Of a DNA stretch of 64,000 bases, positions 16,781 through 36,346 are shown piece by piece (within the stretch, counting starts at the first letter, position 1; each line of letters opens with the position of its first letter). Under the pieces are notes generated by a model. That model ran no database searches, was not told the DNA's origin, and saw only the letters and a program-made list of their open reading frames with translations. The position numbers and the translations under genes are program-made. The stretch covers positions 124,001-188,000 of the forward strand of contig JAQUAX010000003.1 in NCBI GenBank assembly GCA_028687035.1. Reading direction: 5' to 3'. The DNA comes from Dechloromonas sp. (lineage in GTDB: Bacteria > Pseudomonadota > Gammaproteobacteria > Burkholderiales > Rhodocyclaceae).

Positions 16781-16825
16781 ATATTAGCCCCCGGTGATGC
16801 GTGCCGGCTGCGACATAGTGTCGCA
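16781..16825 (-). promoter_or_regulatory. RegA-type operator and -10 box before the nosL pair (site A)
   Basis: Bases 16809-16825 form a perfect inverted repeat, read on the minus strand as TGCGACACTATGTCGCA. After 22 bases comes TAATAT (16781-16786), then 28 bases to the ATG. No -35 hexamer is visible, which suggests activator dependence. The half-sites GCGAC and GTCGC with a five-base spacer match the RegA/PrrA pattern as I recall it. It is the best-conserved member of a set of five. Confidence 0.75.
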
Positions 16826-16827
16826 CC

Positions 16828-17523
16828 TCAGCCGAGCAGGCGGTTCATCACGCTGAAGTAGCGCAGGCCCTGCCACAGCGTCGAGATGCCGAGCGCGATG
16901 ACGAACAGCGCCGCGCCCTTGAGCAGCCAGCCGCGCAGTTCCGGGCCGAGGCGGCCGAACAGGAAGGACGCGGAGAACATCGCGGGCAGCGTGCCGGCGC
17001 CGAAGGCCAGCATCAGCAGAGCGCCTTCGGCCAGCGACGGCGACGTCGTTGCCTTGACCGCCATGGCCATCGTCATCGAACACGGCATCAGGCCGTTGAT
17101 CGCGCCGCCGATCGCGGCGCCGAGCCGGGGGCCCTTGCTGAAGGCTTGGCCGAACTGGCGGCGCAGCCAGGCGACCGGCGCGAAGCCCAGGCTGTTGCGG
17201 ACCGGGGAGACGCCGAGCAGGTCGAGCCCGAGCAGGATCACGGCGAGTCCGGCGACGATCTGCAGCACGCCCTGCCAGCGGCCGAACTCGCCGGTCTGCA
17301 CGAGCACCGCGCCGAGACCGGCGGCGATCAGGCCGATCACCGCATAGACCGTGATCCGGGCGCCGTGGTAGGCCAGGTAGGGCGTCACGCCGCGCGCGCC
17401 CAGCCGGATGAAGAAGCTGGAGACCAGTCCGCCGCACATGCCGAGGCAGTGGCCGCTGCCGAGCAGGCCGGTCATGAAGGCGAGGCCGTACGAAAGTTCG
17501 GCGAGGTGGTGACTTTGTTCCAT
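16828..17523 (-). CDS. SafE/DsbD-type polytopic membrane protein
   Basis: This is a 231-residue membrane protein of the TauE/SafE-like, DsbD_2 (PF13386) type with about six transmembrane helices. The signature GSGHCLGMCGG stands in the first helix and a second conserved cysteine motif, LMPCSMTMAMA, near residue 147. Such proteins often sit beside copper oxidase assembly genes and are proposed to take part in copper or thiol transfer. The stop lies three bases beyond operator site A, so it is upstream of and codirectional with the NosL pair. The start at 17523 is assigned from the first methionine; a weak ribosome site is present. Confidence 0.8.
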   Translation of the reverse strand: MEQSHHLAELSYGLAFMTGLLGSGHCLGMCGGLVSSFFIRLGARGVTPYLAYHGARITVYAVIGLIAAGLGAVLVQTGEFGRWQGVLQIVAGLAVILLGLDLLGVSPVRNSLGFAPVAWLRRQFGQAFSKGPRLGAAIGGAINGLMPCSMTMAMAVKATTSPSLAEGALLMLAFGAGTLPAMFSASFLFGRLGPELRGWLLKGAALFVIALGISTLWQGLRYFSVMNRLLG

Positions 17524-17628
17524 GCGCTGCGGGCTTCCGGCGGTCGACGGAGCGGCAGTCTAGCAAATGCCGAGCCCCGGCAGGTCGGCGCAGCGCCGCC
17601 GCAGTGAAAATCCTGGCCGGAGCGCGGG

Positions 17629-17814
17629 CTACAGGCGGGTTTGCCGGAACAGCAGTCCCATCCACTGCAGGAAGCGGTTGGAGCAGTCGTTGCAGGTCAG
17701 GTGGCGGCTGCCGGACAGCAGGCGCATCAGCGGCGTGCGCGGAATCCGGCGCATTTTCCCGCGGCACTTCGGGCAGCGGACGACGGCTTCTTTCGGGGAG
17801 TTGACTGATGGCAT
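17629..17814 (-). CDS. Small zinc-ribbon protein
   Basis: This is a 61-residue basic protein with two CxxC pairs, CPKCRGKMRRIP and CNDCSNRFL, arranged as a zinc ribbon. The ATG at 17814 is preferred because the predicted promoter and palindrome lie immediately upstream; an earlier in-frame start would run through them. I do not recognise a specific function. It stands alone between the cydX terminator and the SafE-like gene. Confidence 0.6.
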   Translation of the reverse strand: MPSVNSPKEAVVRCPKCRGKMRRIPRTPLMRLLSGSRHLTCNDCSNRFLQWMGLLFRQTRL

Positions 17815-17840
17815 GACGTATAAATTATTGTTTACAAGCC

Positions 17841-17855
17841 GGATACATTGTATCC
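17841..17855. promoter_or_regulatory. Perfect 15-base palindrome overlapping a -10 box
   Basis: The plus strand reads GGATACATTGTATCC, two perfect 7-base arms around one base. On the minus strand it contains TACAAT, a good -10 hexamer for the zinc-ribbon gene that starts at 17814. A protein bound here would block transcription. The spacing resembles GntR-type operators, but I cannot name the regulator. AT-rich sequence follows (17821-17835), unlike the rest of the region. Confidence 0.5.
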
Positions 17856-17888
17856 CGTTATGCCCTGATCGTACCCGTTCCGGGTTGC

Positions 17889-17917
17889 AAAAAGATAACG
17901 GGGGCCGCAGCCCCCGT
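17889..17917 (-). terminator. Intrinsic terminator of the cyd operon
   Basis: On the minus strand an 8-base perfect stem, ACGGGGGC with GCCCCCGT, encloses the loop TGCG. It is followed by TAT and then C and five T residues (complement of 17889-17893). It lies about 20 bases past the cydX stop. Confidence 0.85.
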
Positions 17918-17937
17918 GACACGGAATCAGCGGGCCG

Positions 17938-18052: not shown

Positions 18053-19192
18053 TCAGTAAGCGGAACGCTCGTTGGCTTCGATGAAGCGCGAGGTGACCTT
18101 GCCGGCCATGACCTTGTAGGCCCAGCCGGTGTAGGCGATCACGACGGGCGTGAAGATCAGCGCGGCCCAGAACATCACCGACAGCGTCAGATGGCTTGAA
18201 ACACTGTCCCACGCGGTCAGGCTGGAGCGCGGGTCGGAGGACGACGGCATCACGAACGGGAACATCGAGACGCCCGCCGTGCCGATCACGCCGAGTTCGG
18301 CGACGGCGCTGCAAACGAAGGCAGGCAGCGGCTTGTCGGCGCGGACCATGATCAGCGCGACCAGTCCGCCGGCGAAGCCCAGGCCCGGAACGATCCGCAG
18401 CAGCGGATACTTGCCGAAGTTCGCCATCCAGGCGCCGGCCTGCACGGCGACGGTCTTGTCGAGGGGATTGGGCAGCGCGCCCGGGTCGACCGCGGAGGTG
18501 ATCACGTAGCCCGGAATGCCCAGCGCAACCCAGAAGCCGGCGGCGGCGAAGGCGAGCAGCATCAGCCCGCCGAAGATCAGCGCGGCCTTCTTCGCGCGCT
18601 GGTAGATCGCGCCTTCGGTGCGCAGCATCAGGTAATTCGCGCCGTGGAAGGTCAGCATCGCGAAGCTGACGACGCCGGCGAGCAGCGCGAACGGGTTGAG
18701 CAGCGCCCAGAAGCTGCCGGTGTAGACCGGCATCAGGTCGTTCTGGAAGTGGAAGGGAACGCCCTGCAGCAGGTTGCCGAAGGCGACGCCGAAGATCAGC
18801 GAAGGCACGGCGCCGCCGGCGAACAGCCCCCAGTCCCAGGCCTTGCGCCAGGTGGGGTTGTTCACCTTGGAGCGGTAGTCGAAGCCGACCGGGCGGAAGA
18901 AGAGCGCCCACAGCACCGCCAGCAGGGCCCAGTAGAAGCCGGAGAAGGCGGTCGCGTAGACCAGCGGCCAGGCGGCGAAGATGGCGCCGCCGGCGGTGAT
19001 GAACCAGACCTGGTTGCCGTCCCAGTGCGGGCCGACGGTGTTGATGACGACGCGGCGTTCGACGTCGTCCCGGCCGACGAAGGGGAGCAGCGTGCCGACG
19101 CCCATGTCGTGGCCGTCCATGATCGCGAAGCCGAGCAGCAGCACGCCGACGAGCAGCCACCAGACGAGTTTCAGGGTTACGTAATCGAGCAT
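18053..19192 (-). CDS. cydB: Cytochrome bd ubiquinol oxidase subunit II
   Basis: CydB is the second large subunit of the quinol oxidase in the inner membrane. The 379-residue product starts MLDYVTLKLVWWLLVGVLLLG and has the conserved FAIMDGHDMGVGTLLPF segment and WDGNQVWFITAGGAIFAAWP, both hallmarks of true CydB rather than CioB. Eight or nine helices are evident. It lies between cydA (10-base gap) and cydX and is cotranscribed with them. Confidence 0.96.
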   Translation of the reverse strand: MLDYVTLKLVWWLLVGVLLLGFAIMDGHDMGVGTLLPFVGRDDVERRVVINTVGPHWDGNQVWFITAGGAIFAAWPLVYATAFSGFYWALLAVLWALFFRPVGFDYRSKVNNPTWRKAWDWGLFAGGAVPSLIFGVAFGNLLQGVPFHFQNDLMPVYTGSFWALLNPFALLAGVVSFAMLTFHGANYLMLRTEGAIYQRAKKAALIFGGLMLLAFAAAGFWVALGIPGYVITSAVDPGALPNPLDKTVAVQAGAWMANFGKYPLLRIVPGLGFAGGLVALIMVRADKPLPAFVCSAVAELGVIGTAGVSMFPFVMPSSSDPRSSLTAWDSVSSHLTLSVMFWAALIFTPVVIAYTGWAYKVMAGKVTSRFIEANERSAY

Positions 19193-19202
19193 TTCAGCGT
19201 CC

Positions 19203-20768
19203 TCACGATGCGGTGTTCAGGGCCGGTTCGCCGTCGTAGCGGCCGGTGCCGAGGCTGGCCGGGCCGAGCCGGGCGTACTTGAACATCAGGTACAGTTCGA
19301 CGACGAGCAGGCCGGTGTAGAAAAACATGAAGCCGGCCAGCGAGCCGTACAGGCTGCCGGCGCCCAGCGCCGACGTGGACAGGTGGGTCGGCAGCACGCC
19401 GAAGATGGTCCACGGCTGGCGGCCGTATTCGGCGACGAACCAGCCCATTTCGCAGGCGATCCACGGCACCGGGATGAACCACAGCGCCCAGCGCAGCAGC
19501 CAGCGCCGGTTCTGGAAGCTGTTGCGGGCCGAATGCCAGAAGGCGAGCACGACCAGCGCCAGCATCGCAAAGCCGAGCACGACCATGATCCGGAAGGTCC
19601 AGAACATCGGGGCAACCCTGGGGATCGTGTCGCGCGCGGCCTGCGCCATCATCTCCGGCGTGGCCTGGGCGACGTCGGCGACGTATTTCTTCAGCAGCAG
19701 GCCGTAGCCGAGATCGTCCTTGTGGCTCTCGAAGCGGGCCTTGACCCCGGCATCGGCGGTGCCGGCGCGCAGGCTTTCGAGGTCCTTGACGGCAGTCACG
19801 CCGCGCTTGATGCGTTCGAGCGCCTGCGCTTCGAGCTGGTCGATGCCGGGCAGCACCTTGTCCGTCGACCGCGTCGCGATCAGGCCGAGCAGGTAGGGCA
19901 GTTTGATTTCGGCGGCGTTCTCGCGCCTGTCGTCGTCGGGAATCGCGAACAGCGTGAACGGGGCCGGCGCCGCCTCGGTCTTCCACATGCCTTCCATCGC
20001 CGCCAGCTTGGTCTGCTGGTGTTCGGTGACCGCGTAGCCGGATTCGTCGCCGAGCACGATCACCGAACAGGCCGCGGCGAAGCCGAAGGCGGCGGCGATC
20101 CGGAAGGAGCGCTTGGCGAATTCGACATGGACGCCCTTCAGCAGGTACCAGGCGCTGATGCCGAGCACGAACAGCGACCCGGTGACGTAGCCGGCCGACA
20201 CCGTATGCACGAACTTGGCCTGCGCCGCCGGGTTGAACAGCAGTTCGGCGAACGAGGTCATTTCCATGCGCATCGTCACGTAGCTGAATTCGGCGCCGAC
20301 CGGGTTCTGCATCCAGCCGTTGGCGATCAGGATCCAGACCGCCGACAGGTTGGAGCCGATCGCCGTCAGGTAGGTGATCAGCAGGTGGCCGCGCTTCGAC
20401 AGGCGGTCCCAGCCGAAGAAGAACAGGCCGATGAAGGTGGATTCGAGGAAGAAGGCCATCAGTCCCTCGATGGCCAGCGGCGCGCCGAAGATGTCGCCGA
20501 CGTAGTGCGAGTAGTAGGCCCAGTTGGTGCCGAACTGGAACTCCATCGTGATGCCGGTGGTGACGCCGAGCGCGAAGTTGATGCCGAACAGCTTGCCCCA
20601 GAACTTGACCATGTCCCGGTAGATTTCCTTGCCGCTCATCACGTACACCGTCTCCATGATGGCGAGCAGGAAGGACAGGCCCAGCGTCAGCGGGACGAAG
20701 AGGAAGTGGTAAAACGCGGTGGCCGCGAACTGTAGTCGCGACAGGTCGACGACCGTTGGGTCGATCAT
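19203..20768 (-). CDS. cydA: Cytochrome bd ubiquinol oxidase subunit I
   Basis: CydA oxidises quinol and reduces oxygen with high affinity. The start at 20768 is supported by GGGAG upstream and gives 521 residues. Recognisable ligands and channel residues are His21 (AFYHFLF, haem b595), Glu101 and Glu109 in [15 protein letters not shown], and the haem-b558 His in [11 protein letters not shown] near residue 185. The Met ligand of b558 lies in the Q-loop region. The length matches E. coli CydA, so it is the long Q-loop form, also consistent with the presence of CydX. The gene is in the order cydP-cydA-cydB-cydX, next to the redox regulator genes regBA. Confidence 0.97.
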
Positions 20769-20770
20769 GG

Positions 20771-21124: not shown

Positions 21125-21169
21125 CGCGACAATCCGTCACTTCCGCGGACGGGCCGCATTTCCTAAAGT
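21125..21169 (+). promoter_or_regulatory. RegA-type operator and -10 box before regB (site C)
   Basis: Bases 21125-21141 read CGCGACAATCCGTCACT, an imperfect copy of the shared inverted repeat. After 22 bases comes TAAAGT (21164-21169). Predicted transcription starts near 21176 and passes through a terminator-like hairpin before regB. The site is also in range to influence the divergent cyd operon. If it is a RegA site, regBA regulates itself. Confidence 0.6.
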
Positions 21170-21252: not shown

Positions 21253-22503
21253 ATGACCTCGCTGACTCAACTCGCCCGGGCGCGGCTGATCAAGCTGCGC
21301 TGGCTTTCGGTCGGCGGCATGTTCGCCGCCGCCGTGCTCAGCCCGCACGTGCTCGGCACCGGCGAGGTGATGCACCGCCTGCTAGCCTTCACCGCCGTCG
21401 TCGCCAGCGTCAGCCTGGCCCAGCCGCTGCTCGGGCTGCTCGACCGGGGCGACCGGCTGTCGCCGTTCTCCCCGCTGCTGCAGCTCGGCTTCGATCTCGC
21501 GGCCTGGGCCGTCTACATCTACCTGTCCGGCGGCGCGACCAATCCGCTGATCTCGATCTTCCTGCCGCTGGTCGCCATCGGGGCCAGCGTGCTCGGCCGC
21601 GTGCAGGCCTGGGGGCTGGGCATCGCGGCGATCCTCGCCTATTCCTTCCTGTGGCGTTTCCATGTGCCGCTGCCGGTGCCCGACGCGGAGCGCGCCGCCC
21701 ATCTGCACCTGGCCGGCATGTGGCTGGTCTTCGCGGTGTCGGCGCTGGTCGTCGTCTGGTTCATCCGGCAGATGCGCCAGGCCGTGCGCGAGCGCGACGC
21801 GGCGCTGGCCGAGGCCCGCGAGAAGGCGATCCGCAACGACTGGCTGGTCGCCATGGGCGGCCTCGCCGCGGGCGCCGCGCACCAGCTCAGCACGCCGCTC
21901 GGCACGCTCGGCCTGCTCGTCGACGAGTGGCTGGACGAGAGTGCGCTGCCGGCGGCGCTGCATGACGACCTGGCGCTGATGCAGCGTCAGGTCGCGGTCT
22001 GCAAGCAGGCGCTGACGCAATTGACCGAGCGCGCCGGCCAGCCGCGCGGCGGCGACGGCATGCCGGTCGGCCAGTGGCTGCAGGGCTGCCTGCTCGCGTG
22101 GCAGGCGCTGAATCCGGCCGCGGCGACCGACGTCGCCATCTCGCCCCGCCTGGACGGCGTCGGCCTGCCGATCGACGTGTCGCTCGAGCGCGCGCTGGCC
22201 AACCTGCTCGACAACGCCCGCCATGCCGGCGCGACGCGCATCGACATCCGCGCCGAGCGCCACGGCGGCGAGTTGCGCGTCGATATCGACGACGACGGTC
22301 CCGGCATTGCGCCGGCCGCGCTGGCCGATCTGGCGGCGGGGCGGCCCGCCGCATCGAACGGCGGCATGGGGATCGGCCTGCTGCTGACCCGCGCCGCGCT
22401 CGAACGCCTGGGCGGCCGCCTGGCGCTGCAGCGCCTGCCCGGCCGGGGCACCCGGGCCAGCCTGCTGCTGCCGCTCGCCCCATTTTCCGGAGAAACGACA
22501 TGA
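21253..22503 (+). CDS. regB: Redox sensor histidine kinase of the RegB/PrrB family
   Basis: This is a 416-residue membrane kinase with about six helices in residues 15-170. The segment GGATNPL at 93-99 corresponds to the RegB quinone-sensing heptad GGxxNPF, with Leu in place of the final Phe. The phosphoacceptor His210 lies in [16 protein letters not shown], which is the RegB-type H box. Cys250 in QVAVCKQAL matches the position of the redox-active cysteine of RegB. The kinase domain ends with [18 protein letters not shown]. The ATG at 21253 is preferred over a TTG at 21217, which lies in the terminator-like hairpin. The stop overlaps the regA start (ATGA). Confidence 0.88.
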
Positions 22504-23048
22504 ACCCCCACGAAATGCGCCTGCTGATCATCGACGACGACGATGCCTACCGCGAAGTGCTGTCCCGTTCGCTGGGCCGCCGGGGATTCTCGGTCAGCCT
22601 GGCCGGCAGCCTCGACGAGGGGCTGGCGGCCTGCCGCGACCACGATCCGGACTACGTGCTGCTCGACCTGAACCTGGACGGTCAGTCCGGGCTGAGCCTG
22701 ATCCAGCCGATTCTCGACCTCGCGCCGGGCGCGCGCATCGTCGTCCTGACCGGCTACGCCAGCATCCAGACCGCGGTCGGCGCACTGCGCCTGGGCGCCG
22801 GGCACTACCTGCCGAAGCCGGCCGGCGTCGCCGACATCGTCAAGGCGCTGCTCGAGGACGAGGTCGACATTCCGGACGACGGCCCGGACGACCGGATGAC
22901 GGTCCGCCACCTCGAGTGGGAATACATCCAGCGCATGCTGGCCGAGCACGACGGCAACATCGCGGCGACGGCGCGGGCGCTGAAGATGCACCGGCGCACG
23001 CTGCAGCGCAAGCTGGCCAAGAAGCGGCCGCTGGCCATCGAGGTCTGA
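22500..23048 (+). CDS. regA: Redox response regulator of the RegA/PrrA/ActR family
   Basis: This is a 182-residue response regulator. The receiver has the acidic cluster IIDDDD, phosphoacceptor Asp56 (LLDLNLDG), Thr in VVLTGYAS and Lys in YLPKPAG. After a short linker a Fis-type helix-turn-helix follows (GNIAATARALKMHRRTLQRKLAKK), the DNA-binding arrangement of RegA, PrrA and ActR. It is translationally coupled to regB. RegBA systems respond to quinone redox state and control terminal oxidases, denitrification and related genes. Five promoters in this window carry a fitting operator. Confidence 0.9.
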   Translation: MNPHEMRLLIIDDDDAYREVLSRSLGRRGFSVSLAGSLDEGLAACRDHDPDYVLLDLNLDGQSGLSLIQPILDLAPGARIVVLTGYASIQTAVGALRLGAGHYLPKPAGVADIVKALLEDEVDIPDDGPDDRMTVRHLEWEYIQRMLAEHDGNIAATARALKMHRRTLQRKLAKKRPLAIEV

Positions 23049-23055: not shown

Positions 23056-23100
23056 TGCGACAATCGGTCGCGGGGGGCGCCCGGCGTTTGCCACTAGAAT
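23056..23100 (+). promoter_or_regulatory. RegA-type operator and -10 box before fecI (site D)
   Basis: Bases 23056-23072 read TGCGACAATCGGTCGCG, with perfect GCGAC-N5-GTCGC arms. After 22 bases comes TAGAAT (23095-23100), 43 bases before the sigma factor ATG. It lies 8 bases after the regA stop, so fecI has its own promoter rather than relying on regBA readthrough. Confidence 0.7.
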
Positions 23101-23143: not shown

Positions 23144-23635
23144 ATGGCCGATACGATCGCCCATCTCTACATCGAACATCTCGGGGAAATCCGGCGCTTC
23201 CTGGCCCGCCGGCTGGCCTGCGTCGACGCCGCCGCCGAACTGGCGCAGGAGGTCTTCGTCCGCTACCTGGTCGCCGCGCCGGGCCGGCAGATCGACAACC
23301 CGCGCGCCTTCCTGTTCCGGATCGCCGGCAATCTCGCGGTCGACCGCCACCGGGCGGCCGTTTCGGTCCGCCACGTCGATATCGACGAATGCGTCGACCT
23401 CGCCTCCGACTATCCGTCGCCCGAGCGCTTCGCGATCGCCCGCCAGGAAGTCGAGCGCCTGCGCCGGGCGATCGAGGAACTGCCGCCGAAGTGCCGCGAG
23501 GTGTTCGTCCGCCACAAATTCGACGGCATTCCGCAGGCGACGCTGGCCGAGGAGTACCGGGTGACGCTGAACGCGATCGAGAAACACCTGGTCCGGGCGC
23601 TGGTGCACCTGCGTTGCCGGGTGATGCCGGCATGA
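23144..23635 (+). CDS. ECF sigma factor, FecI type
   Basis: This is a 163-residue extracytoplasmic-function sigma factor. Region 2 includes ELAQEVFVRYL and NPRAFLFRIAGNLAVDRHR, and region 4 includes LPPKCREVFVRHKFDGIPQATLAEEYRVTLNAIEKHL. These are FecI-like features. The ATG at 23144 follows CAGGAA. The gene is coupled to the FecR-like gene by an ATGA overlap, and a TonB-dependent receptor with an STN domain follows, so it should switch on that receptor when ligand binds. The ligand is not iron-specific by sequence. Confidence 0.9.
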   Translation: MADTIAHLYIEHLGEIRRFLARRLACVDAAAELAQEVFVRYLVAAPGRQIDNPRAFLFRIAGNLAVDRHRAAVSVRHVDIDECVDLASDYPSPERFAIARQEVERLRRAIEELPPKCREVFVRHKFDGIPQATLAEEYRVTLNAIEKHLVRALVHLRCRVMPA

Positions 23636-24528
23636 ATCCGCCATCCGCCAAAACGAAGGCGCTGGCCGAGGAGGCCGCTGCCTGGTTCGTCCGCCTGCGC
23701 CGCCCCGGCCTCGACGACGCCGAGCGCCGGCGCTTCGAGCAGTGGCTGGCCAGCGCCCCGGAACACCGGCGCGAATACGCCTGCATCGAGCGCCTGTGGG
23801 GTAGCCTCGACCGCGTCGGCCGGCCGGCCCCGCGCCGCCGGCGGGCGGCGGCGCTGGCCGCGGCGCTGGCCGCCGCCGCGGTGCTGCTGCACGCGACTTT
23901 CGCGGTCGACCTGCGCGAAGGCACCAAAATCGGCGAGCTGCGCCAGGTCGTGCTGCAGGACGGCACCGTCGTCGAACTGGATGCCGACACCGTGCTCGAC
24001 ATCGACTACACGCCGTGGCGGCGGCGCATCACGCTGGAGCGCGGCCAGGCCCAGTTCCGGGTCGCGCCGGGCTGGCGCCCCTTCTCGGTCCGCGCCGGCG
24101 ACGGCACGGTGCGCGACATCGGGACGACCTTCAACGTCTGGGAAGAATGCGGCGAGGTCCGCGTCGCGGTCCAGCAGGGCGAGGTCGAAATCGACCTCGA
24201 TGCCGGCGGCGCGCCGCACCGGCTGCACGCCGGCCAGCAGACCAGCTACCGCGCCGGCGGCGTCGACGAGCCGCGCCCGGCGCCGGCAGCGCCGGCGTGG
24301 CGCAGCAACCGCTGGCTGTTCGAAGGCGCGACGCTGGGCGAGGTGGTCAGCGAGATCAACCGCCTGCACGAGCGGCCGGTCGTGCTGTCCGACGCCTCGC
24401 TGGCCCGGCTCCGGGTCAGCGGCGTGTTCGAGCGCAGCGACCGGGCCGGCCTGCTCCGCGCGCTGGCGCTGGCGCTGCCGCTGCGCGTCGAGGAAACGCT
24501 GGACGCGACGATGCTGCGTCGGCGCTGA
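23632..24528 (+). CDS. FecR-family anti-sigma / sigma regulator
   Basis: This 298-residue protein has an N-terminal cytoplasmic DUF4880-like region with EEAAAWFVRLRRPGLDDAERRRFEQWLA, split over residues 13-40. One transmembrane helix lies near 64-83. The periplasmic FecR domain (LREGTKIGELRQVVLQDGT, DIGTTFNVW, VQQGEVEI) and a short STN-like C-terminus follow. It would relay receptor occupancy to the adjacent sigma factor. It overlaps the sigma gene by ATGA and is 100 bases from the receptor gene. Confidence 0.9.
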   Translation: MNPPSAKTKALAEEAAAWFVRLRRPGLDDAERRRFEQWLASAPEHRREYACIERLWGSLDRVGRPAPRRRRAAALAAALAAAAVLLHATFAVDLREGTKIGELRQVVLQDGTVVELDADTVLDIDYTPWRRRITLERGQAQFRVAPGWRPFSVRAGDGTVRDIGTTFNVWEECGEVRVAVQQGEVEIDLDAGGAPHRLHAGQQTSYRAGGVDEPRPAPAAPAWRSNRWLFEGATLGEVVSEINRLHERPVVLSDASLARLRVSGVFERSDRAGLLRALALALPLRVEETLDATMLRRR

Positions 24529-24628: not shown

Positions 24629-26992
24629 ATGCATCGACCGTTACGGCTCGCCCTGCTGCTCGCCGCCCTCCATGCCGGCGGCGCGCAGGCCCAGGCGAAG
24701 AGCATCGACATCGCCGCGCAGGACCTGTCCGGCGCGCTGACAGCGCTGGCCAGCCAGGGGGGCATCCAGCTGCTGTTCAGCACCGATGAGCTGAAGGGCG
24801 CCCGCTCGGCCGCAGTGCGCGCCGCGCCGGGACCGGAAGAGGCGCTGCAGCGCCTGCTCGACGGCAGCGGCTTCACCTTCGTCCGCTCCGGACCGGGCAG
24901 CTACGTGATCCGCAGGCGGCCGCCGGCCGGGCAGTCGGCGACGGTCTTGCCCGAGGTCGTCGTGACTTCGGCGGCGGAGCGCGGCTACAAGGCCGACAAG
25001 GTCGCCGTCGCCGGCAAGATTCCGCTGTCGCCGCGCGAGATTCCGAACTCGGTGTCGGTGCTGACCCGGGAACAGATCGAGGAGCAGGGACTGGTGACGA
25101 TGCAGGACGGCCTGCAGCAGGTGACCGGCATCAACGTCGTCGCCAACGACACCTCGAACGCCCAGTACTGGGCCCGTGGTTACGGACTGGGCGTGATGTA
25201 CGACGGCGTCGCGTCGTACAACGGCATGACGCCGTCGCACCAGTTCGACCTTGCGCTGTACGAGCGGATCGAGGTGCTGCGTGGTCCGGCCGGCCTGCTG
25301 CGCGGGGTCGGCGAGCCGGGCGGCGTCGTCAACCTGGTCAAGAAGCGCCCGCAGGAGCAGTTCGGCTTCGCGTGGAGCGCCGGCGCCGGGTCCTGGAACA
25401 ACTACCGCGCCGAAGCCGATGTCACCGGTCCGCTGAACGAGGCGCGCAGCCTGCGCGGCCGCCTGGTCGTCGCCAACGAGGATCGCGGCTATTTCTACGA
25501 TCATACGCACGGCCGGAAATGGCTGGCGATGGGGGCGCTCGAGTATGCGCTGTCGCCGGCGACCCGCTTCTCCCTGTCATTCACGGCCCAGGACGCCGAC
25601 GTCCGGGCGCCGTGGTCCGGCCTGCCGACTTCCAGCGCGAAGGATGCGGAGGGGCACTTCCGGCTGCTCGATGTCGACCGGTCGACCTTCCATGCGCCGG
25701 AGTGGGGCCGGATGCTTTACCACACCGAGGAAAGCTCGGCCGCCGCGGAGCAACGCTTCGACAACGGCTGGTTGGCGAAGGCCAGCCTGAATCACCGGGA
25801 GTGGCGGCAGGACTACAAATATGCCTACAGCTATTCGTCGGTCGATGTATCGACCAAGCGTCTCGACTACAGAACCACGCGGGGCGACGGGGATTATGCG
25901 CGCGACGGCATCGACCTCTACGCCAGCGGCCCGTTCCAGTGGCTCGGCCGGCAGCACAGGCTGCTGTTCGGGTTCAACGCCGAGGAGTACCGCTACCGCA
26001 GCAAGTCGGGCAGCGGCCCGGTCATCTCCGGCGTGCTGTTCGGCGACCTGTCGCCACTGGCCGAGCCGGACATCGCCTATACCTCGGGCAAGGAAAACTC
26101 GACGGTGCAGTCCGGCTTCTACACGCAGTTGCGCCTCAGCCTGGCCGATCCGCTGACGCTGGTCGCCGGAGCGCGGACGACGAGTTTCGAGAACCGCTAC
26201 CACAACGTCGCGCCGTCCAAGGCGCAGGCATGGATCAGGGGCGCCAAGGCCGACAACGAGGTGACGCCCTACGCCGGGCTGCTGTTCGACGTCAGCCGGG
26301 AAGTCACGCTGTATGCCAGCTACGCCGACATCTTCGTGCCGCAGACGCAGGCGAAGACCGGCGGCGGCGTGCTCGATCCGCGGGTCGGCCGGCAGTACGA
26401 GATCGGCAGCAAGGCCGATCTGCTCGACGGCCGACTGGCGGCCTCGCTCGCGCTGTTCGACATCCGCGACCGCAACCGGGCCTATCTCGACCTGGTGGGC
26501 GACCCGGACGGCAATTCCTACCTGAACGCGGGCGAGGTCGAAAGCAAGGGCTGGGAGCTCGAATTCGCCGGCAAGCCGCTGCGCGGGCTGGACCTGAGCG
26601 CCGGCTACACCAACCTGAGCACCTCCTACCTGAAGGACAAGGACAACGAAGGCAAGTCCTATTCGATTTTCTCGCCGCGCCACCAGTACAAGCTGTGGAG
26701 CAACTACCGCTTCGCCGCCGATGGCGAGCTCGCGGGCTTCAGCGTCGGCCTCGGGCTGATCGCGCAGAGCCGGGCGCAGAGCACGCGCGGCTGGCGCGAC
26801 GAGGTGGTCAATACCGCCTATACCGTGGTCAATGGCCGCATCGGCTACCAGATCGACGCCCGCCATTCGGTCAGCCTTGCGGTGAACAACCTGTTCGACC
26901 GCAAATACTACGCATCGGTCGGCACGCCGAATAACTACAACTTCTACGGGGAGCCGCGCAGCCTGATGCTGACCCTCCGTGGCAGTTACTGA
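24629..26992 (+). CDS. TonB-dependent outer membrane receptor with signalling domain
   Basis: This 787-residue receptor has a signal peptide ending at GAQAQA, an STN (secretin/TonB N-terminal) signalling domain at about 25-95, a TonB-box-like segment (LPEVVVTSA), a plug domain (PRSIPNSVSVL-type sequence at 130-240) and a 22-strand barrel ending in RSLMLTLRGSY with the usual terminal aromatic. It resembles FpvA/FoxA-class transducers, which take up metal chelates. The next gene, 10 bases away, encodes a Tat-exported NosL-like copper protein, so copper or a copper chelate is a reasonable guess for the ligand; ferric siderophores remain possible. Confidence 0.9.
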   Translation: MHRPLRLALLLAALHAGGAQAQAKSIDIAAQDLSGALTALASQGGIQLLFSTDELKGARSAAVRAAPGPEEALQRLLDGSGFTFVRSGPGSYVIRRRPPAGQSATVLPEVVVTSAAERGYKADKVAVAGKIPLSPREIPNSVSVLTREQIEEQGLVTMQDGLQQVTGINVVANDTSNAQYWARGYGLGVMYDGVASYNGMTPSHQFDLALYERIEVLRGPAGLLRGVGEPGGVVNLVKKRPQEQFGFAWSAGAGSWNNYRAEADVTGPLNEARSLRGRLVVANEDRGYFYDHTHGRKWLAMGALEYALSPATRFSLSFTAQDADVRAPWSGLPTSSAKDAEGHFRLLDVDRSTFHAPEWGRMLYHTEESSAAAEQRFDNGWLAKASLNHREWRQDYKYAYSYSSVDVSTKRLDYRTTRGDGDYARDGIDLYASGPFQWLGRQHRLLFGFNAEEYRYRSKSGSGPVISGVLFGDLSPLAEPDIAYTSGKENSTVQSGFYTQLRLSLADPLTLVAGARTTSFENRYHNVAPSKAQAWIRGAKADNEVTPYAGLLFDVSREVTLYASYADIFVPQTQAKTGGGVLDPRVGRQYEIGSKADLLDGRLAASLALFDIRDRNRAYLDLVGDPDGNSYLNAGEVESKGWELEFAGKPLRGLDLSAGYTNLSTSYLKDKDNEGKSYSIFSPRHQYKLWSNYRFAADGELAGFSVGLGLIAQSRAQSTRGWRDEVVNTAYTVVNGRIGYQIDARHSVSLAVNNLFDRKYYASVGTPNNYNFYGEPRSLMLTLRGSY

Positions 26993-27002
26993 GGAGGCCG
27001 CC

Positions 27003-27548
27003 ATGGACAGACGCACCCTGCTGCTCGCCGGCCTGGGCTTCGCCGCGTCCGCGGCGGCGCGGGCCGCCGACGGGCCGGCCGCCGGCGACGACCCGCTGGT
27101 CGACGAACTGGAAAAACACCCGCGCTGCGTGATCTGCAACATGGACCGCCGCAAGTTCCACGATGCCCGCCACCTGCTGCACTACGGCGACGGCAGCGTG
27201 CAGGGCACCTGCTCGGTGCATTGCGCGTCGGAGTGCATGCTGCGCGAGCGGCGGCGCGGCTTCCGGGCGATCTACGCGCCGGATTTCGGCGCGGCCGGCG
27301 AGCCGAAACCGCTGGTCGAGGCGGCGTCGGCGACCTACCTGATCGGCAGCGACCTGCGCGGCGTGATGACGCCGGTCAGCAAGGTCGCCTTCGCCAGCCG
27401 CGACGCGGCCCTGCAGGCGCGCGCCGTGTATGGCGGGGAGATCGCCGGCTTCGCCGCCGCGGTCGCCGCGTCGCTGGAGGAGATGGCGGCCGGGCTTGCC
27501 CGCCGCTACGACAACGACCGCGAGCGCCTGCGCCGGCGTGCCGGCTGA
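27003..27548 (+). CDS. Tat-exported NosL-like protein linked to the receptor
   Basis: This is a 181-residue paralogue of the protein at 16153-16752. A short twin-arginine signal (MDRRTLLLAGLGFAASAAA) precedes the metal motif CVICNMD (Cys42, Cys45, Met47) and a second pair CSVHC (Cys70, Cys74). The segments PKPLVEAASATYLIGSDLRG and MTPVSKVAFAS align with its paralogue. The ATG at 27003 follows GAGGAGG and lies 10 bases after the receptor stop, so it is cotranscribed. It probably receives metal in the periplasm from the receptor system. Confidence 0.82.
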   Translation: MDRRTLLLAGLGFAASAAARAADGPAAGDDPLVDELEKHPRCVICNMDRRKFHDARHLLHYGDGSVQGTCSVHCASECMLRERRRGFRAIYAPDFGAAGEPKPLVEAASATYLIGSDLRGVMTPVSKVAFASRDAALQARAVYGGEIAGFAAAVAASLEEMAAGLARRYDNDRERLRRRAG

Positions 27549-27567
27549 GGCCTGCGGCGCTTTGCCG

Positions 27568-27613
27568 CGCGACAATTTGTCCGATTCCCGGGCGGGCGGC
27601 GACTGCCTAGCAT
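27568..27613 (+). promoter_or_regulatory. RegA-type operator and -10 box before the Sel1 gene (site E)
   Basis: Bases 27568-27584 read CGCGACAATTTGTCCGA, an imperfect copy of the shared inverted repeat. After 23 bases comes TAGCAT (27608-27613), 66 bases before the ATG. The spacing and lack of a -35 box are as at the other four sites. Confidence 0.6.
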
Positions 27614-27679: not shown

Positions 27680-28249
27680 ATGTCCGCGCTGCCCGCCCGC
27701 CTGCTTGGCATTGCCTGCCTGCTGTTGTCCGCCGCCGCCGTCCGCGCGGCACCGATCGACGTCGAGATGCGCGAGGCCGCGCAGCGCCACCGCCAGGGCG
27801 ACACCGCCGCAGCGGTCGCCATCTGGCAGCGCTGGGCCGGCCAGGGCGACGCCGATGCCGCCTACAACCTCGGGCTGGTCTACCAGCACGGCGACGGCGT
27901 GCCGGCCGATCCGGCGCGGGCGCTGACCTGGTACCGCGCCGCCGCCGACAAGGGCGACAAGCCGGCCCAGTTCCAGATCGGGCTGATGTACCAGAACGGC
28001 GAAGGCGTCGCCGCCGATCCGGCCGAGGCGCACCGCTGGTTCACGCTGCACCGGCGCCACCACATGCACCATGCGCACACCCCGCAGATGGTCGCCTGGC
28101 GCCAGCAGGCGCTGGCCCTGATCGACGACCGGGACCGCCGCGAGCAGCTGGCCGCGGCGCGCCGCGACGGCGCGCTGGTCGTCGCCGAACTGCAGCGCCG
28201 GGCCGGGCTGACGCCCCGCCCGGCACAGCTGGCCCTGGCCGCCGACTGA
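27680..28249 (+). CDS. Periplasmic Sel1-repeat protein with His-rich segment
   Basis: This 189-residue protein has a signal peptide ending at VRAA and two or three Sel1-like repeats (AAYNLGLVYQHGDGVPADPARALTWYRAAAD and QFQIGLMYQNGEGVAADPAEAHRWF; each is a separate copy). The segment RRHHMHHAH near residue 129 is rich in His and could bind metal. GGAGG precedes the ATG. It converges on the Cu(I) ATPase gene with a single base between the stops. A role in copper or envelope maintenance is inferred from the neighbourhood and operator only. Confidence 0.78.
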   Translation: MSALPARLLGIACLLLSAAAVRAAPIDVEMREAAQRHRQGDTAAAVAIWQRWAGQGDADAAYNLGLVYQHGDGVPADPARALTWYRAAADKGDKPAQFQIGLMYQNGEGVAADPAEAHRWFTLHRRHHMHHAHTPQMVAWRQQALALIDDRDRREQLAAARRDGALVVAELQRRAGLTPRPAQLALAAD

Positions 28250-33346: not shown

Positions 33347-34020
33347 CAGGCGTCGACCAGGCGGCCGTCGCGCATGCCGACGACGCGATGCACGGCGCTC
33401 GATTCGACGACCAGCGGGTCGTGGCTGGTCAGCAGCACGGTCTTGCCGGCCGCCGTGAAGCTTTCGAGGATGGCCATGAATTCCTTCGACAGCGCGGTGT
33501 CCAGGTTGGCGGTCGGCTCGTCAGCGATGATCACTTCCGGATCGTTGATCAGCGCGCGGGCGATCGCGACGCGCTGCTGCTCGCCGCCGGACAGCCATTC
33601 GACGCGGGCCGCGGCGCGGTGGCCAAGCTGCAGCTGGTCGAACAGCCGGTTCGCGCTCTCCACCAGTTCGGCGCGCGGGCGGCCGGTCGGGAAGGCGGGC
33701 AGGATCACGTTCTCGAGCGCCGACAGCCCCTTGATCAGGTTGAACTGCTGGAACACGAAGCCGAAGCTCTGGCGGCGGATGTCGGTCAGGAAGCGCTCGG
33801 GCAGGCCGGAAATGTCCTCGCCCTTGAAGCGGACGCGGCCGCTGGTCGGGCGGGCCAGGCAGCCGACGATGGTCAGCAGCGTCGTCTTGCCGGAACCGCT
33901 GGGGCCGCGGAAGGCGGTCACGCGGCCGGGCTCGATCGCCAGATCGATGCCGTGCAGCGCCCAGTATTCGTTGTCGCGGCCCTGGTTGAAGGCCTTCTTG
34001 ATGTCGGAAAGCTCGATCAT
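33346..34020 (-). CDS. ABC transporter ATP-binding protein, MacB/LolD type
   Basis: This 224-residue ATPase has Walker A GPSGSGKTT, Q-loop FVFQQFNLI, signature LSGGEQQRVAIARAL and Walker B VIIADEPTANLD, followed by the H-loop TSHDP. It belongs to the MacB/LolD/FtsE group, which drives mechanotransmission across the envelope rather than classical import. The stop of the permease overlaps its start by ATGA, making them a pair. Confidence 0.9.
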   Translation of the reverse strand: MIELSDIKKAFNQGRDNEYWALHGIDLAIEPGRVTAFRGPSGSGKTTLLTIVGCLARPTSGRVRFKGEDISGLPERFLTDIRRQSFGFVFQQFNLIKGLSALENVILPAFPTGRPRAELVESANRLFDQLQLGHRAAARVEWLSGGEQQRVAIARALINDPEVIIADEPTANLDTALSKEFMAILESFTAAGKTVLLTSHDPLVVESSAVHRVVGMRDGRLVDA

Positions 34021-35153
34021 GCGCGCATCACCGAATCGGGGTCGGTGATCGCCGCGCGCCAGATCGGCACCAGCACCGCCGCCGTGTAGGGGAAAACCGT
34101 GAAGAAGAACAGCGTCGCCACCTGCAGGCCATCGACCGCCGGAACCAGCGCGAACTTCGGGTAGAGCACCGACCAGCCCTTCAACACCGGCTCGAACACC
34201 GCAGCGCCGAAATGGAAGACATGGACGTAGGCGGCGACGAAGCCGAGCAGGAAGGCGGTCAGCGAGATCAGCAGGCCTTCCCAGACCTTCATCCGGATCA
34301 CGTCGCCGGTTTCCCAGCCGATCGCCTTCAGGATGCCGATCTCGCGCTTCTCCTCGGCCGACAGCCCGGAGGCCTTTTCCCAGGCGAGGATCGCGAAGGC
34401 GAGGATGGCGCCGGCCAGCACGGTCAGCACGATGCCCTCGCGCCAGTCGAACACGCTCTGGTAGGTGCGCAGCACCTCCTCGCGCAGGATGGGCCGCGAA
34501 TCGGGCAGCGCGGCCGCCAGCTTGGCGGCGACGTTGCGCACCTCCTGCGGGTTGGCGACCGACAGCGCGATGTCGGTGTAGTGGCCGGCCGGGTATTCGA
34601 AGAAGCTGCGGAAATCGGCTTCCGACAGCAGCACGAGGTCGGCCGACAGCAGTTCGGCGTCCGGCGACAGCACGCCGGCGACCTCGAAGGTGAACAGCTT
34701 GCCGGAATAGGAACGGAAGGACACGGTGTTGTGCTGGGCCAGGCCGCGTTCGCGGGCGAGCGCGGCGCCGACCATGATCGTGCCGTCGGCGACCTCGCTG
34801 GCCGGGCGCGCCATGAAGGTGTAGTTGGCGTTCAGCACCGGGTCGTAGTAGTAGCCCCAGAGCCGGCCTTGCTGCTTCTGGACGCCGCGGATGCGGCCGA
34901 TCTTCTCGAGGTAGCCCGGCGGGATCAGGTCGTGGCGGCCGGCGACCATGCGCTGCAGGATGACTTCCGGCGAGCCGGCCAGCACGAAGGCGGCCTCGGT
35001 GCGCAGCGCGTTGGAGAACAGCGTCAGCGACGCGAGCACGAAGACCAGCGTCGCGTAGGCGGCGAGCAGCCCGAGGTTCTTGGTCTTGCGCCGGGCCAGC
35101 GAGGCCAGTGTGAAGTCAATCAGGTGACGTTGTTTTTCCAGCCAGGGGTGCAT
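34017..35153 (-). CDS. ABC transporter permease, FtsX/MacB type
   Basis: This 378-residue permease has the FtsX/LolE layout: one N-terminal helix (residues 28-48), a long periplasmic domain and three C-terminal helices. The cytoplasmic coupling segment EEKREIGILKAIGWETGDVIRMK is typical. The periplasmic domain has no Cys. It works with the ATPase downstream. The substrate is unknown; the operon suggests copper-protein assembly or metal delivery. Its first 38 bases overlap the small membrane gene upstream. Confidence 0.88.
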   Translation of the reverse strand: MHPWLEKQRHLIDFTLASLARRKTKNLGLLAAYATLVFVLASLTLFSNALRTEAAFVLAGSPEVILQRMVAGRHDLIPPGYLEKIGRIRGVQKQQGRLWGYYYDPVLNANYTFMARPASEVADGTIMVGAALARERGLAQHNTVSFRSYSGKLFTFEVAGVLSPDAELLSADLVLLSEADFRSFFEYPAGHYTDIALSVANPQEVRNVAAKLAAALPDSRPILREEVLRTYQSVFDWREGIVLTVLAGAILAFAILAWEKASGLSAEEKREIGILKAIGWETGDVIRMKVWEGLLISLTAFLLGFVAAYVHVFHFGAAVFEPVLKGWSVLYPKFALVPAVDGLQVATLFFFTVFPYTAAVLVPIWRAAITDPDSVMRA

Positions 35154-35445
35154 GGTGTCGGGTCAGCGAGGCCGGCGGCGGCAGCAGCGAGCCGGACGGG
35201 AAATGGTCGAAGCCGCCCGGGTGGTCCTGCAGCGCCGAATGCAGGTCGGCCTGGGTCGGATGGCGAGTGTAGCGGGCTTCGGTGAACAGCGCGAGGTCGG
35301 TCAGGCCGAGGCGTTCGACCAGGTCGCGGGTGGCCTCGAGGCGCGGCGCGTGCGCCGCGGTGGACTGCGCCGCGACGACGAAAATGCCGGCCGCCGCCGT
35401 GGCCAGCGCGCCGATCACCAGCAGGGCCGCGGTGGACGGGCGCAT
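35116..35445 (-). CDS. Small membrane-anchored protein between sco and the ABC permease
   Basis: This 109-residue protein has an N-terminal helix (residues 5-25) and a periplasmic tail with LFTEARYTRHPTQADLHSALQDHPGGFDHFPSGSL, split over residues 55-90. The tail is rich in His, Asp and Phe. It starts by ATGA overlap with sco and overlaps the permease start by 38 bases. The reading frame is open and the C-terminal sequence is ordered rather than random, so I take it as real. Function unknown. Confidence 0.65.
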   Translation of the reverse strand: MRPSTAALLVIGALATAAAGIFVVAAQSTAAHAPRLEATRDLVERLGLTDLALFTEARYTRHPTQADLHSALQDHPGGFDHFPSGSLLPPPASLTRHHAPLAGKTTSPD

Positions 35446-36023
35446 CACAGGTATTTCCGGACCGTCGAGACGATCTGCGCGGTCGGCGTGCCGAGATCGA
35501 GCACCGCGGCCAGCTTGCCGTCGCGGTCGACGACGTAGGTCGCCGTCGTATGGTCGATTGCGTAGCTGCCGTCGGCCTGGACCGGTCCCTTCAGGTAACC
35601 GGCGCCGTAGGCGCGGGCGACTTTGGCGATCTGTGCCGGGGTGCCGGTGACGCCGGTCATCGCCGGGTGGAAGAAGGCGGTGTAGCGCTTCAGGTGCTCG
35701 ACGCTGTCGCGCTCCGGGTCGACGGAGACCATCAGCAGCCGGACCCGGGCCCGCTCGTCGGACGTCAGCGCGTTCAGCGCCTGGCCGCCGGCGGCCAGCG
35801 AGGCCGGGCAGACGTCGGGGCAGTGCGTGTAGCCGAAATAGACGAGCAGCACCTGGCCGCGCAGCGCCAGCGTATCGACGGCGCCTTCGGCCGAGTTCAG
35901 CACGAAATCGCCGCCGGCCGGACGGGCCGGGCCGGCGTCCTGGCGGGCGCCCTGCCACAGCAGCGCGCCGCCGAGCAGCAGGGCGAGCAGGCCGGCGACG
36001 CCGAACAGCGCGTAAGGTTTCAT
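35445..36023 (-). CDS. SCO1/SenC-family copper chaperone
   Basis: This 192-residue membrane-anchored thioredoxin-fold protein has an N-terminal helix and the copper motif THCPDVCP (Cys68, Cys72) with the third ligand His near residue 158 (YAIDHTTATYVVD). SCO proteins load Cu into the CuA or CuB sites of oxidases and related enzymes. It is the second gene of the eleven-gene operon and its C-terminus overlaps the next gene by ATGA. No cytochrome oxidase of the haem-copper type is present here. Confidence 0.93.
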   Translation of the reverse strand: MKPYALFGVAGLLALLLGGALLWQGARQDAGPARPAGGDFVLNSAEGAVDTLALRGQVLLVYFGYTHCPDVCPASLAAGGQALNALTSDERARVRLLMVSVDPERDSVEHLKRYTAFFHPAMTGVTGTPAQIAKVARAYGAGYLKGPVQADGSYAIDHTTATYVVDRDGKLAAVLDLGTPTAQIVSTVRKYL

Positions 36024-36090
36024 GATCGGGAACAGTCGGGGAACCGGGCGGCATTCTGCCCGGCACCGGGGTTTCTGGCCAGCGGGTCTT

Positions 36091-36270
36091 TCAGAAGCGG
36101 TTGGCGGCGCGCATCAGCGCCCCGCGCAGCGCGATGGTCAGGCTGGAACCCATGCCGATGCGCTGGGCGACGGCCGGCAGGATGATCAGAGAGGCCAGGG
36201 CGAAACCGGCGCCGAGCAGCAGGGAGGCCATTTCGGGCTGGGTTTCGGTCGTTTTCGGTGTTTGGCTCAT
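36091..36270 (-). CDS. Small single-pass membrane protein, first gene of the operon
   Basis: This 59-residue protein starts MSQTPKTTETQPEMAS and has a hydrophobic segment LLLGAGFALASLIILPAVA, then a basic tail. The ATG is preceded by GGGGAG and lies 30 bases after the -10 of site B, so it is the first gene transcribed. Its stop is 67 bases before sco. I do not recognise it. It is short, but its ribosome site, promoter and length of open frame support it. Confidence 0.65.
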   Translation of the reverse strand: MSQTPKTTETQPEMASLLLGAGFALASLIILPAVAQRIGMGSSLTIALRGALMRAANRF

Positions 36271-36300
36271 CGCATCGTCTCCCCAAGGACTTCGGGAAGC

Positions 36301-36346
36301 ATCGTAGCCGCTTCCCGGCGACCGGGGGATGCGACATATTGCCGCA
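36301..36346 (-). promoter_or_regulatory. RegA-type operator and -10 box of the eleven-gene operon (site B)
   Basis: Read on the minus strand, 36330-36346 is TGCGGCAATATGTCGCA, one base from a perfect inverted repeat. After 23 bases comes TACGAT (36301-36306). This would drive all genes from 36270 down to the Cu(I) ATPase ending at 28251. Confidence 0.7.

What the first reader, a model, noticed from the sequence alone, without database searches (positions are those of the whole stretch)
16781..36346. Five promoters share one operator and -10 architecture: a candidate RegA regulon
Seen directly: 17-base inverted repeats at 16809-16825, 21125-21141, 23056-23072, 27568-27584 and 36330-36346, each followed by 22, 22, 22, 23 and 23 bases and a TANNNT -10 box (TAATAT, TAAAGT, TAGAAT, TAGCAT, TACGAT), and none with a -35 box. 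Two sites are on the minus strand and three on the plus strand, all oriented toward a gene start. Known: the RegA/PrrA/RegR sites I recall have arms GNGRC-N5-GNCGC. Inference: RegA encoded at 22500-23048 activates copper handling genes, the ECF/receptor set and its own operon from a class II-like position near -43.
Basis: partly seen in the sequence, partly recalled or inferred. Interest (0 to 1): 0.9.

Follow-up and report, generated by a model that had tools for sequence, protein, structure and literature searches.

The report
Fixed-spacing RegA promoters for copper genes
Five promoters in this bacterium, and matching ones in many relatives, carry the same DNA landing site at a fixed distance from the start of transcription, which suggests that a respiration-sensing regulator (RegA) switches on the cell's copper supply through one standard promoter design.

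Summary
In detail: all five 17-mers, orientations and 22/22/22/23/23-base spacings to TANNNT are as described, and not chance. In 119 loci outside the genome, the palindrome TGCGACA-N3-TGTCGCA is followed by TANNNT at spacer 22/23 in 48 of 221 oriented sites, against 2 of 267 for shuffled palindromes. A model trained only on relatives puts four of the five sites among the top six matches in the genome; site 2 is missed. Orthologues chosen by protein alone carry site and -10 box in 14 of 16 relatives for NosL and 14 of 15 for SCO1, against 0 of 11 second NosL copies and 0 of 14 distant SCO1 genes. Matches follow RegA in 198 family genomes (40 of 106 with, 4 of 92 without). Downstream genes are mostly copper delivery or TonB uptake. 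One correction: 23-base promoters carry TTCCC where a -35 box would sit. The window's RegA is a divergent second RegA; a genus-wide RegA1 lies elsewhere, and which acts is unresolved. Binding, activation and copper response are inferred. A new promoter-level variant of a known regulator.

The parts
16809..16825 (-). operator 1 (TGCGACACTATGTCGCA), 22 bases before TAATAT, NosL promoter
   Evidence: model R1 22.1 bits, genome E 8.6e-4; same site and -10 box before NosL in 14 of 16 relatives with the orthologue
16781..16786 (-). -10 box TAATAT of the NosL promoter
16153..16752 (-). NosL-family protein
   Evidence: Pfam NosL 1.4e-12; start
21125..21141 (+). operator 2 (CGCGACAATCCGTCACT), 22 bases before TAAAGT, regB promoter
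   Evidence: same arrangement before regB2 in 6 relatives; not reported by model R1
21164..21169 (+). -10 box TAAAGT of the regB promoter
21253..22503 (+). RegB-type histidine kinase (RegB2)
   Evidence: NCBIfam NF033792 E 1.5e-51, 175.6 bits, cut-off 350; start
22500..23048 (+). RegA-type response regulator (RegA2), receiver plus Fis-type HTH
   Evidence: Pfam Response_reg and HTH_8; NCBIfam NF033791 E 6.9e-49, 166.2 bits, cut-off 250; tree
23056..23072 (+). operator 3 (TGCGACAATCGGTCGCG), 22 bases before TAGAAT, promoter of the ECF/FecR/TonB receptor/NosL set
   Evidence: R1 17.0 bits, genome E 0.038; 4 relatives
23095..23100 (+). -10 box TAGAAT of the ECF promoter
23144..23635 (+). ECF sigma factor
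   Evidence: NCBIfam sigma70-ECF 7.7e-20; start
23632..24528 (+). FecR-type anti-sigma regulator
   Evidence: Pfam FecR 1.1e-18; start
24629..26992 (+). TonB-dependent receptor with STN signalling domain
   Evidence: Pfam; NCBIfam TonB-siderophor 350.3 bits, cut-off 223.5
26979..27548 (+). second NosL-family protein, last gene of the set
   Evidence: Pfam NosL 5.6e-12
27568..27584 (+). operator 4 (CGCGACAATTTGTCCGA), 23 bases before TAGCAT, Sel1-protein promoter; TTCCCG directly after it
   Evidence: R1 16.4 bits, genome E 0.056; 4 relatives
27608..27613 (+). -10 box TAGCAT of the Sel1 promoter
27680..28249 (+). Sel1-repeat protein
   Evidence: Pfam Sel1 5.6e-19
36330..36346 (-). operator 5 (TGCGGCAATATGTCGCA), 23 bases before TACGAT, SCO1-operon promoter
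   Evidence: best R1 match in the genome, 26.6 bits, E 3e-5; same site and -10 box in 14 of 15 relatives with the SCO1 orthologue
36301..36306 (-). -10 box TACGAT of the SCO1-operon promoter
36091..36270 (-). 59-aa membrane-type leader protein (GAGFALASL family)
   Evidence: relatives right after the site in 19 of 57 loci
35445..36023 (-). SCO1/SenC copper chaperone; on the same strand an ABC system (33346-35153), a redoxin (31846-32337) and a CopA-like ATPase (28251-30770) follow and could be one operon (not tested)
   Evidence: Pfam SCO1-SenC 3.1e-39; ATPase: NCBIfam ATPase-IB1_Cu 565.9 bits, cut-off 397

Best explanation
The five sites are operators of a RegA/PrrA-type response regulator, a 17-base palindrome TGCGACA-N3-TGTCGCA, each placed so that its centre lies about 43 or 44 bases before the predicted start of transcription, directly upstream of the -35 position of a promoter with a good -10 box and a poor (22-base class) or TTCCC-type (23-base class) -35 region. 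A RegA dimer bound there would contact RNA polymerase and make up for the missing -35 contacts, as class II activators do. The genes so controlled look like a copper supply regulon: outer-membrane uptake (TonB receptors, TonB, ECF/FecR signalling), periplasmic delivery (SCO1, NosL, PCuAC), and regBA itself (autoregulation). RegB probably reports the redox state of the quinone pool, so the cell would raise copper supply when copper-dependent terminal reductases run short. Shown: site geometry, conservation, co-occurrence with RegA, gene content. Inferred: RegA binding, activation, promoter starts, copper response, quinone signal.
For: Spacing peak at 22/23: 48 of 221 against 2 of 267 in shuffled palindromes. 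A model trained on relatives alone re-finds four of five sites among the top six matches in 3.33 Mb. Orthologues picked by protein alone have site and -10 box in 14 of 16 (NosL) and 14 of 15 (SCO1) relatives, against 0 of 11 and 0 of 14 for second NosL copies and distant SCO1 genes. All five promoters have counterparts in relatives, with the spacer much less alike than site and -10 box (these rows were chosen by having the site, so the contrast is inflated). Matches follow RegA: 7 of 8 against 1 of 16 genomes outside the genus, and 40 of 106 against 4 of 92 in the family for matches over 15 kb from regA. A cluster of 20 elements precedes regB (identified from the nine members shown and their place before regA). 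Genes: 18 TonB receptors, 16 SCO1, 3 NosL, 2 PCuAC, 2 TonB, 1 MbnP of 54. The motif resembles RegR GNGRCRTTNNGNCGC as quoted in PMC5506826 (passages).
Against: No binding or transcript data exist here. Site 2 (regB) is not reported by the model. At E <= 0.01, 58 of 106 RegA-bearing family genomes other than the own show no match, and 4 genomes without RegA do. Inside the genus all 35 relatives have a match at E <= 0.05, including G001 and G015, which lack a close RegA (one match each, E 0.018 and 0.031), so the genus does not discriminate. Four of 15 places in the own genome lie inside genes, all at E > 0.3. The sites at nosZ, at C11:200878 and at regB1 lack TANNNT at 22/23, so the geometry is not universal. 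The model was trained on loci near regA, and related genomes are not independent, so the co-occurrence tests are partly circular. Control palindromes were unequal: one gave 118 of the 267 sites, and one was drawn twice. Three of the six TonB receptors tested match the copper receptor family TIGR01778, far below its cut-off (46-70 bits against 472), and the window's receptor scores as a siderophore receptor. RegA-type proteins in the passages read bind further upstream.
Confidence: 0.72

Rival explanations
1. The operator is read mainly by RegA1 (contig C11), the RegA conserved in the genus; the window's RegBA2 is a divergent copy that carries the same operator or tunes the response.
For: Of the 16 relatives with the NosL orthologue, 11 have no RegA2-type protein (best RegA match 57% or less); 9 of these 11 have the site and -10 box within 200 bases of NosL, and in G011 a site lies 210 bases upstream. 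The recognition helices are nearly identical. RegB2 of the window has HQ in the H-box where 49 of 83 rows have HE and 7 HQ.
Against: RegA2 is kept in five same-genus relatives, with site-bearing SCO1 or NosL within 15 kb in G006, G010, G014 and G023, and regB2 carries its own operator in all four of these five genomes where its upstream region is on the contig: G006, G010, G014, G016.
Confidence: 0.5
2. RegA represses rather than activates: bound next to the -35 position it blocks RNA polymerase.
For: PrrA acts both ways (PMC4263372, passages); the site abuts the -35 position.
Against: The promoters lack a consensus -35 box, which fits need of an activator; spacing is held exactly, which a roadblock would not need.
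Confidence: 0.15
3. Another regulator reads the palindrome, for example the Crp-like protein encoded in the C1 TonB-receptor operon.
For: Crp/Fnr proteins are classic class II activators (recalled); the Crp-like gene sits in a site-bearing operon, and 24 of 36 genomes of the genus have it.
Against: At E <= 1e-10 it is absent from the 7 RegA-bearing genomes outside the genus that have matches and from 12 genomes of the genus that have matches; its only match outside the genus is in G044, which has no site match. Other Crp-family proteins were not tested. The palindrome has N7 between TGCGA and TCGCA, not the N6 recalled for Crp.
Confidence: 0.08
4. Chance palindromes in G+C-rich DNA near random TANNNT.
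For: The bare arms occur at chance level.
Confidence: 0.01

Closest known systems
RegB/RegA of Rhodobacter capsulatus, PrrBA of R. sphaeroides
   Same: Receiver plus Fis-type HTH; GCG-type inverted repeat; respiratory targets; link to the SCO1-type chaperone SenC.
   Different: PrrA ChIP gave no strong consensus, and a degenerate repeat with varying spacer is described (PMC4263372, passages); R. capsulatus ChIP, however, reports 61 sites with a well-conserved sequence (PMC5359404, abstract and passages). R. capsulatus ccoN is protected at -80 to -49 (PMC9147068, passages). The window RegA lacks a cysteine near the HTH: its only cysteine is Cys45.
RegSR of Bradyrhizobium japonicum
   Same: RegR box GNGRCRTTNNGNCGC (quoted in PMC5506826) is close to the motif here.
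   Different: Half sites differently spaced; fixR-nifA element around -67 (PMC4064962, passages).
RegBA of Acidithiobacillus ferrooxidans
   Same: Binds the regulatory regions of respiratory operons, cyd included.
   Different: Binds generally upstream of the -35 box, and no shared motif was found (PMC5506826, passages).
CrtA-CrpH copper uptake operon of Bordetella (TonB receptor plus PepSY_TM)
   Same: Two TonB receptors with sites upstream in G051 lie beside PepSY_TM genes.
   Different: There, control described is post-transcriptional through CruR (PMC12914433, PMC13038864, passages).
Class II activator promoters (Crp, Fnr; recalled)
   Same: Activator site near the -35 position, good -10 box, poor -35 box.

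Membership tests
RegA/PrrA/ActR response regulators | Receiver domain plus C-terminal Fis-type HTH | tested here: met
   Pfam PF00072 3.2e-22, PF02954 2e-10; best PDB sequence match 3rqi over residues 6-175, and 1umq (photosynthetic apparatus regulatory protein) over the HTH
RegA/PrrA/ActR response regulators | NCBIfam equivalog cut-off NF033791 | tested here: not met
   166.2 bits against 250: same family, not the equivalog
RegB/PrrB/ActS kinases | NCBIfam equivalog cut-off NF033792 | tested here: not met
   175.6 bits against 350
RegB/PrrB/ActS kinases | Quinone motif GGXXNPF (PMC8191878, passage) | tested here: inconclusive
   GGATNPL in the window; GGATNPL is the commonest form, 23 of 83 rows
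RegB/PrrB/ActS kinases | Redox-active cysteine after the H-box | tested here: inconclusive
   A cysteine lies in VAVCKQAL; equivalence to Cys265 is recalled, not aligned
Group 1 RegB/RegA | Cotranscribed with senC, and Cys156 in RegA (PMC9147068, passage) | tested here: not met
   SCO1 lies about 13 kb away on the other strand; RegA2 has only Cys45
RegA regulon | Direct binding of RegA to the operator | not testable with these tools
   Only conservation and co-occurrence
Class II activator promoter | Activator site at fixed distance overlapping or abutting -35 | tested here: met
   22/23 peak; start sites not mapped, so the position is relative to the -10 box only
TonB copper receptor TIGR01778 | Score above cut-off 472.45 | tested here: inconclusive
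   L201 46.1, L176 48.1, L142 69.6 bits; L176 and L142 sequences are cut short, L201 is whole and misses; three other receptors tested, the window's among them, show no match at E <= 1e-10

The most novel reading that the evidence does not exclude
In Rhodocyclaceae and related bacteria, RegBA is the transcriptional regulator of copper acquisition and delivery: a quinone-redox sensor used as an indirect copper gauge, acting through one standard class II-like promoter (RegA at -43/-44, TANNNT, TTCCC in place of -35), sometimes serving two divergent promoters from one palindrome.
Probability: 0.42. Interest if true: 0.75.

Novelty: new variant of a known kind. Interest (0 to 1): 0.6.

Why it matters
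Reports on RegA-type sites differ: degenerate with variable spacing in several systems, well conserved in one. A strict motif with a fixed promoter position would make the regulon predictable from sequence. It would also offer a regulator for copper acquisition in beta-proteobacteria, which a survey calls less well known (PMC6769254, passage), and tie copper supply to N2O reductase, the enzyme that removes a greenhouse gas.

Tried and rejected
Chance: bare arms GCGACN5GTCGC are at chance level, so significance was sought with the full palindrome, spacing and relatives.

Crp-like regulator as reader: disfavoured by distribution. Copper-driven RegA disulfide (PMC9147068 model) as the signal: unlikely here, because RegA2 has no cysteine near the HTH. 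Site 2 as a cydAB operator: no TANNNT at 22/23 on the minus strand (read). A TTGACA -35 box: the 22-base class is no better than shuffled spacers; the 23-base class is better, through TTCCC.

Rows dropped or caveats: A1 and model R1 used 48 of 57 non-redundant elements (9 of the 13 with three mismatches left out). The 57 loci behind searches are the best match of the best-scoring genomes only (29 of 43 other genomes with a match, 28 of 52), and some overlap the training loci. One search scanned 54 of the 57 (L183, L186, L232 left out: site near a contig end, gene on the other strand, or no clear gene); for L212, L221, L227 and L229 the second gene was given; 208 elements include own-genome and both-orientation rows, not all with TANNNT; its clusters are single-linkage, up to nine members shown. 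In one search the L162 row of the SCO1 group is out of register by one base (its 22 should read 23), and its rows were chosen by having the site; one search was run to remove that bias. In one search the two NosL relatives without a site within 200 bases are G011 (a site 210 bases upstream) and G021; the SCO1 relative without one (L272, G028) starts three bases into its contig, so its upstream region is missing.

Literature searches showed, in the rows listed, no paper on this promoter geometry or on RegA control of copper uptake in these bacteria; only open papers of that library were searched, only the top rows were seen, and I read passages found by terms, no whole text.
Full report
OBSERVATION. 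One search confirms all five 17-mers, their strands and the spacing to TANNNT. The downstream genes are NosL (site 1), RegB (site 2), ECF sigma/FecR/TonB receptor/NosL (site 3), a Sel1 protein (site 4), and a 59-aa ORF followed by SCO1 (site 5). The bare arms are common in this 69.5% G+C window and prove nothing.

IS IT MORE THAN CHANCE. In 119 loci outside the own genome (mostly RegA loci) I took every match to TGCGACA-N3-TGTCGCA with up to two mismatches (221 oriented sites) and recorded TANNNT downstream: spacer 22 has 21, spacer 23 has 27, and the others between 10 and 33 mostly 0 to 3 (21 has 8, 27 has 6, 28 has 4). Twelve draws of shuffled-arm palindromes (one drawn twice, one giving 118 of the sites) gave 267 sites with 1 and 1, and at most 7 at any spacer, 28. 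From 57 non-redundant elements, 48 were aligned and made into a sequence-only model with no member from the own genome.

ORTHOLOGUES CHOSEN BY PROTEIN ALONE. To avoid picking promoters by their sites, I searched 60 genomes with the window's NosL and SCO1 and looked upstream whatever was there. For NosL, 15 of 17 orthologues (14 of 16 relatives, 74-86% identical) have the palindrome with at most one mismatch and TANNNT at 22 or 23; of 11 second NosL copies none has (the window's own second copy among them, which lies inside the ECF set). For SCO1, 15 of 16 (14 of 15 relatives, 50-67% identical) have it; of 14 more distant SCO1 genes (46-51%) none has. All these relatives are of the same genus, except one distant SCO1 genome (G049).

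OWN GENOME. The model returned 20 matches (E up to 1.46; 150 of 2289 first-look candidates scored), which I group into 15 places. The top six are site 5 (3e-5), site 1 (8.6e-4), C1:219575 before a TonB receptor (9.3e-4; -10-like GACAAT at 23), site 3 (0.038), C19:91285 before a nosZ (0.053), and site 4 (0.056). Others lie before a second nosZ with a divergent 161-aa/SCO1/PCuAC operon, a TonB receptor at C11:157017, an ECF sigma at C11:162941, a 173-aa protein at C11:200878 (the site overlaps the end of the preceding ORF) and a TonB receptor at C12:12598. Four places lie inside genes, all with E > 0.3. Site 2 is not reported. The nosZ sites, C11:200878 and the regB1 site lack TANNNT at 22/23, so other geometries also exist.

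PROMOTER DETAIL. Aligning each of the five promoters with relatives found to carry the element: identity in the operator is 79-89%, in the -10 box 80-93%, in the spacer 31-51%, and in the downstream flank 32-39%; since these rows were chosen by the element, the contrast is inflated. Spacing is kept per promoter: 22 for NosL (9 rows), regB2 (7) and ECF (5), 23 for Sel1 (5), and 23 for SCO1 except in G006 and G010; one NosL (G016) has 23. In 62 non-redundant 23-base elements the spacer starts TTCCC (T 55, T 40, C 38, C 38, C 35), exactly where a -35 hexamer 17 bases from the -10 box would begin; 41 22-base elements show no such preference. Taking the -10 box as -12 to -7, the operator centre is at -43 or -44. 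Five palindromes have TANNNT at 22/23 on both sides (L085, L087, L088, L115, L121): one operator, two divergent promoters.

WHO READS IT. Outside the genus, matches at E <= 0.05 occur in 7 of 8 genomes with RegA and 1 of 16 without (p 1.8e-4). Inside the genus all 35 relatives have a match, the two without a close RegA (G001, G015) with one weak match each. In 198 family genomes other than the own one, matches at E <= 0.01 occur in 48 of 106 with RegA (E <= 1e-30) and 4 of 92 without (p 1e-11); counting only matches more than 15 kb from a regA, 40 of 106 and 4 of 92 (p 4e-9). More than half of the RegA genomes have no match at this threshold, related genomes are not independent, and the model was trained near regA genes. 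The Crp-like gene found in a TonB-receptor operon does not share the distribution. The own genome has two RegA proteins: RegA1 on C11, of the genus-wide clade, and the window's RegA2, grouped with G006, G010, G014, G016, G023, Azonexus R2A61, D. aromatica HJP_bin19 and Azospira oryzae (the deeper branches are weakly supported, and a Streptomyces-labelled contig falls beside them). Both have nearly the same recognition helix, and most genomes with the NosL promoter have only RegA1, so the sites cannot tell the two apart.

WHAT IT CONTROLS. In 208 elements (both orientations, own genome included, not all with TANNNT) the first genes cluster as regB 20, TonB receptors 19 and 17, SCO1 16, NosL 10, a 161-aa-type protein 10, an unknown 313-aa protein 8, PCuAC 7, nosZ 7, Sel1 5, ECF 4 and smaller ones. 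For 54 of 57 best matches of the best-scoring genomes, Pfam gives 18 receptors (Plug), 16 SCO1, 3 NosL, 2 PCuAC, 2 TonB, 1 MbnP, and others once or twice; 19 of 57 have the small leader protein of the SCO1 operon. SCO1, NosL and PCuAC are known copper chaperones; the receptors' copper role is inferred, since the ones tested miss the TIGR01778 cut-off and the window's receptor scores as a siderophore receptor. PepSY_TM partners in G051 recall the CrtA-CrpH copper operon (passages).

MECHANISM. RegB senses the quinone pool (stated in passages). A shortage of active copper enzymes would leave the pool reduced and RegB active; RegA would then raise copper uptake and delivery. The cydAB genes next to regBA2 encode an oxidase that, from general knowledge, needs no copper, which fits. 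All of this step is inference.

COMPARISON AND VERDICT. In the passages read, RegA, PrrA and RegR sites are mostly degenerate and placed further upstream, though one ChIP study reports a well-conserved sequence. A strict motif in a fixed class II-like position serving mainly copper genes is a new variant of a known regulator family. Direct binding, activation and copper response remain to be tested.

Noticed in passing
window 27553-27569: A second, weaker palindrome (TGCGGCGCTTTGCCGCG) overlaps operator 4 by two bases; in the four Sel1 relatives a better site stands there: a tandem pair 15 bases apart.
   Followed up: partly
window 21253-22503: The RegB2 H-box reads HQLSTPL; 49 of 83 rows have HE and 7 HQ. 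Kinase activity may be altered.
   Followed up: partly
G000 C19:84402 and C19:91285 (L189): Two nosZ genes (Sec-dependent type) about 7 kb apart, each with an operator-like palindrome upstream but no TANNNT at 22/23.
   Followed up: partly
window 18053-20768: cydAB lies divergent to regBA2; apart from site 2 itself, 360 bases away, no operator of this type stands before it.
   Followed up: no
L122 and L133: Contigs labelled Streptomyces cinereus and Rhizobium sp. carry proteobacterial-type RegA; the RegA of L133 is almost identical to that of Thiobacillus thioparus. Possibly mislabelled or contaminant contigs.
   Followed up: no
L115:7627-8568, L217, L231: A family of about 310-330 aa proteins with CG..FC or a similar motif near the start is repeatedly the first gene after the operator; the one scanned (L115) has no Pfam match.
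   Followed up: partly
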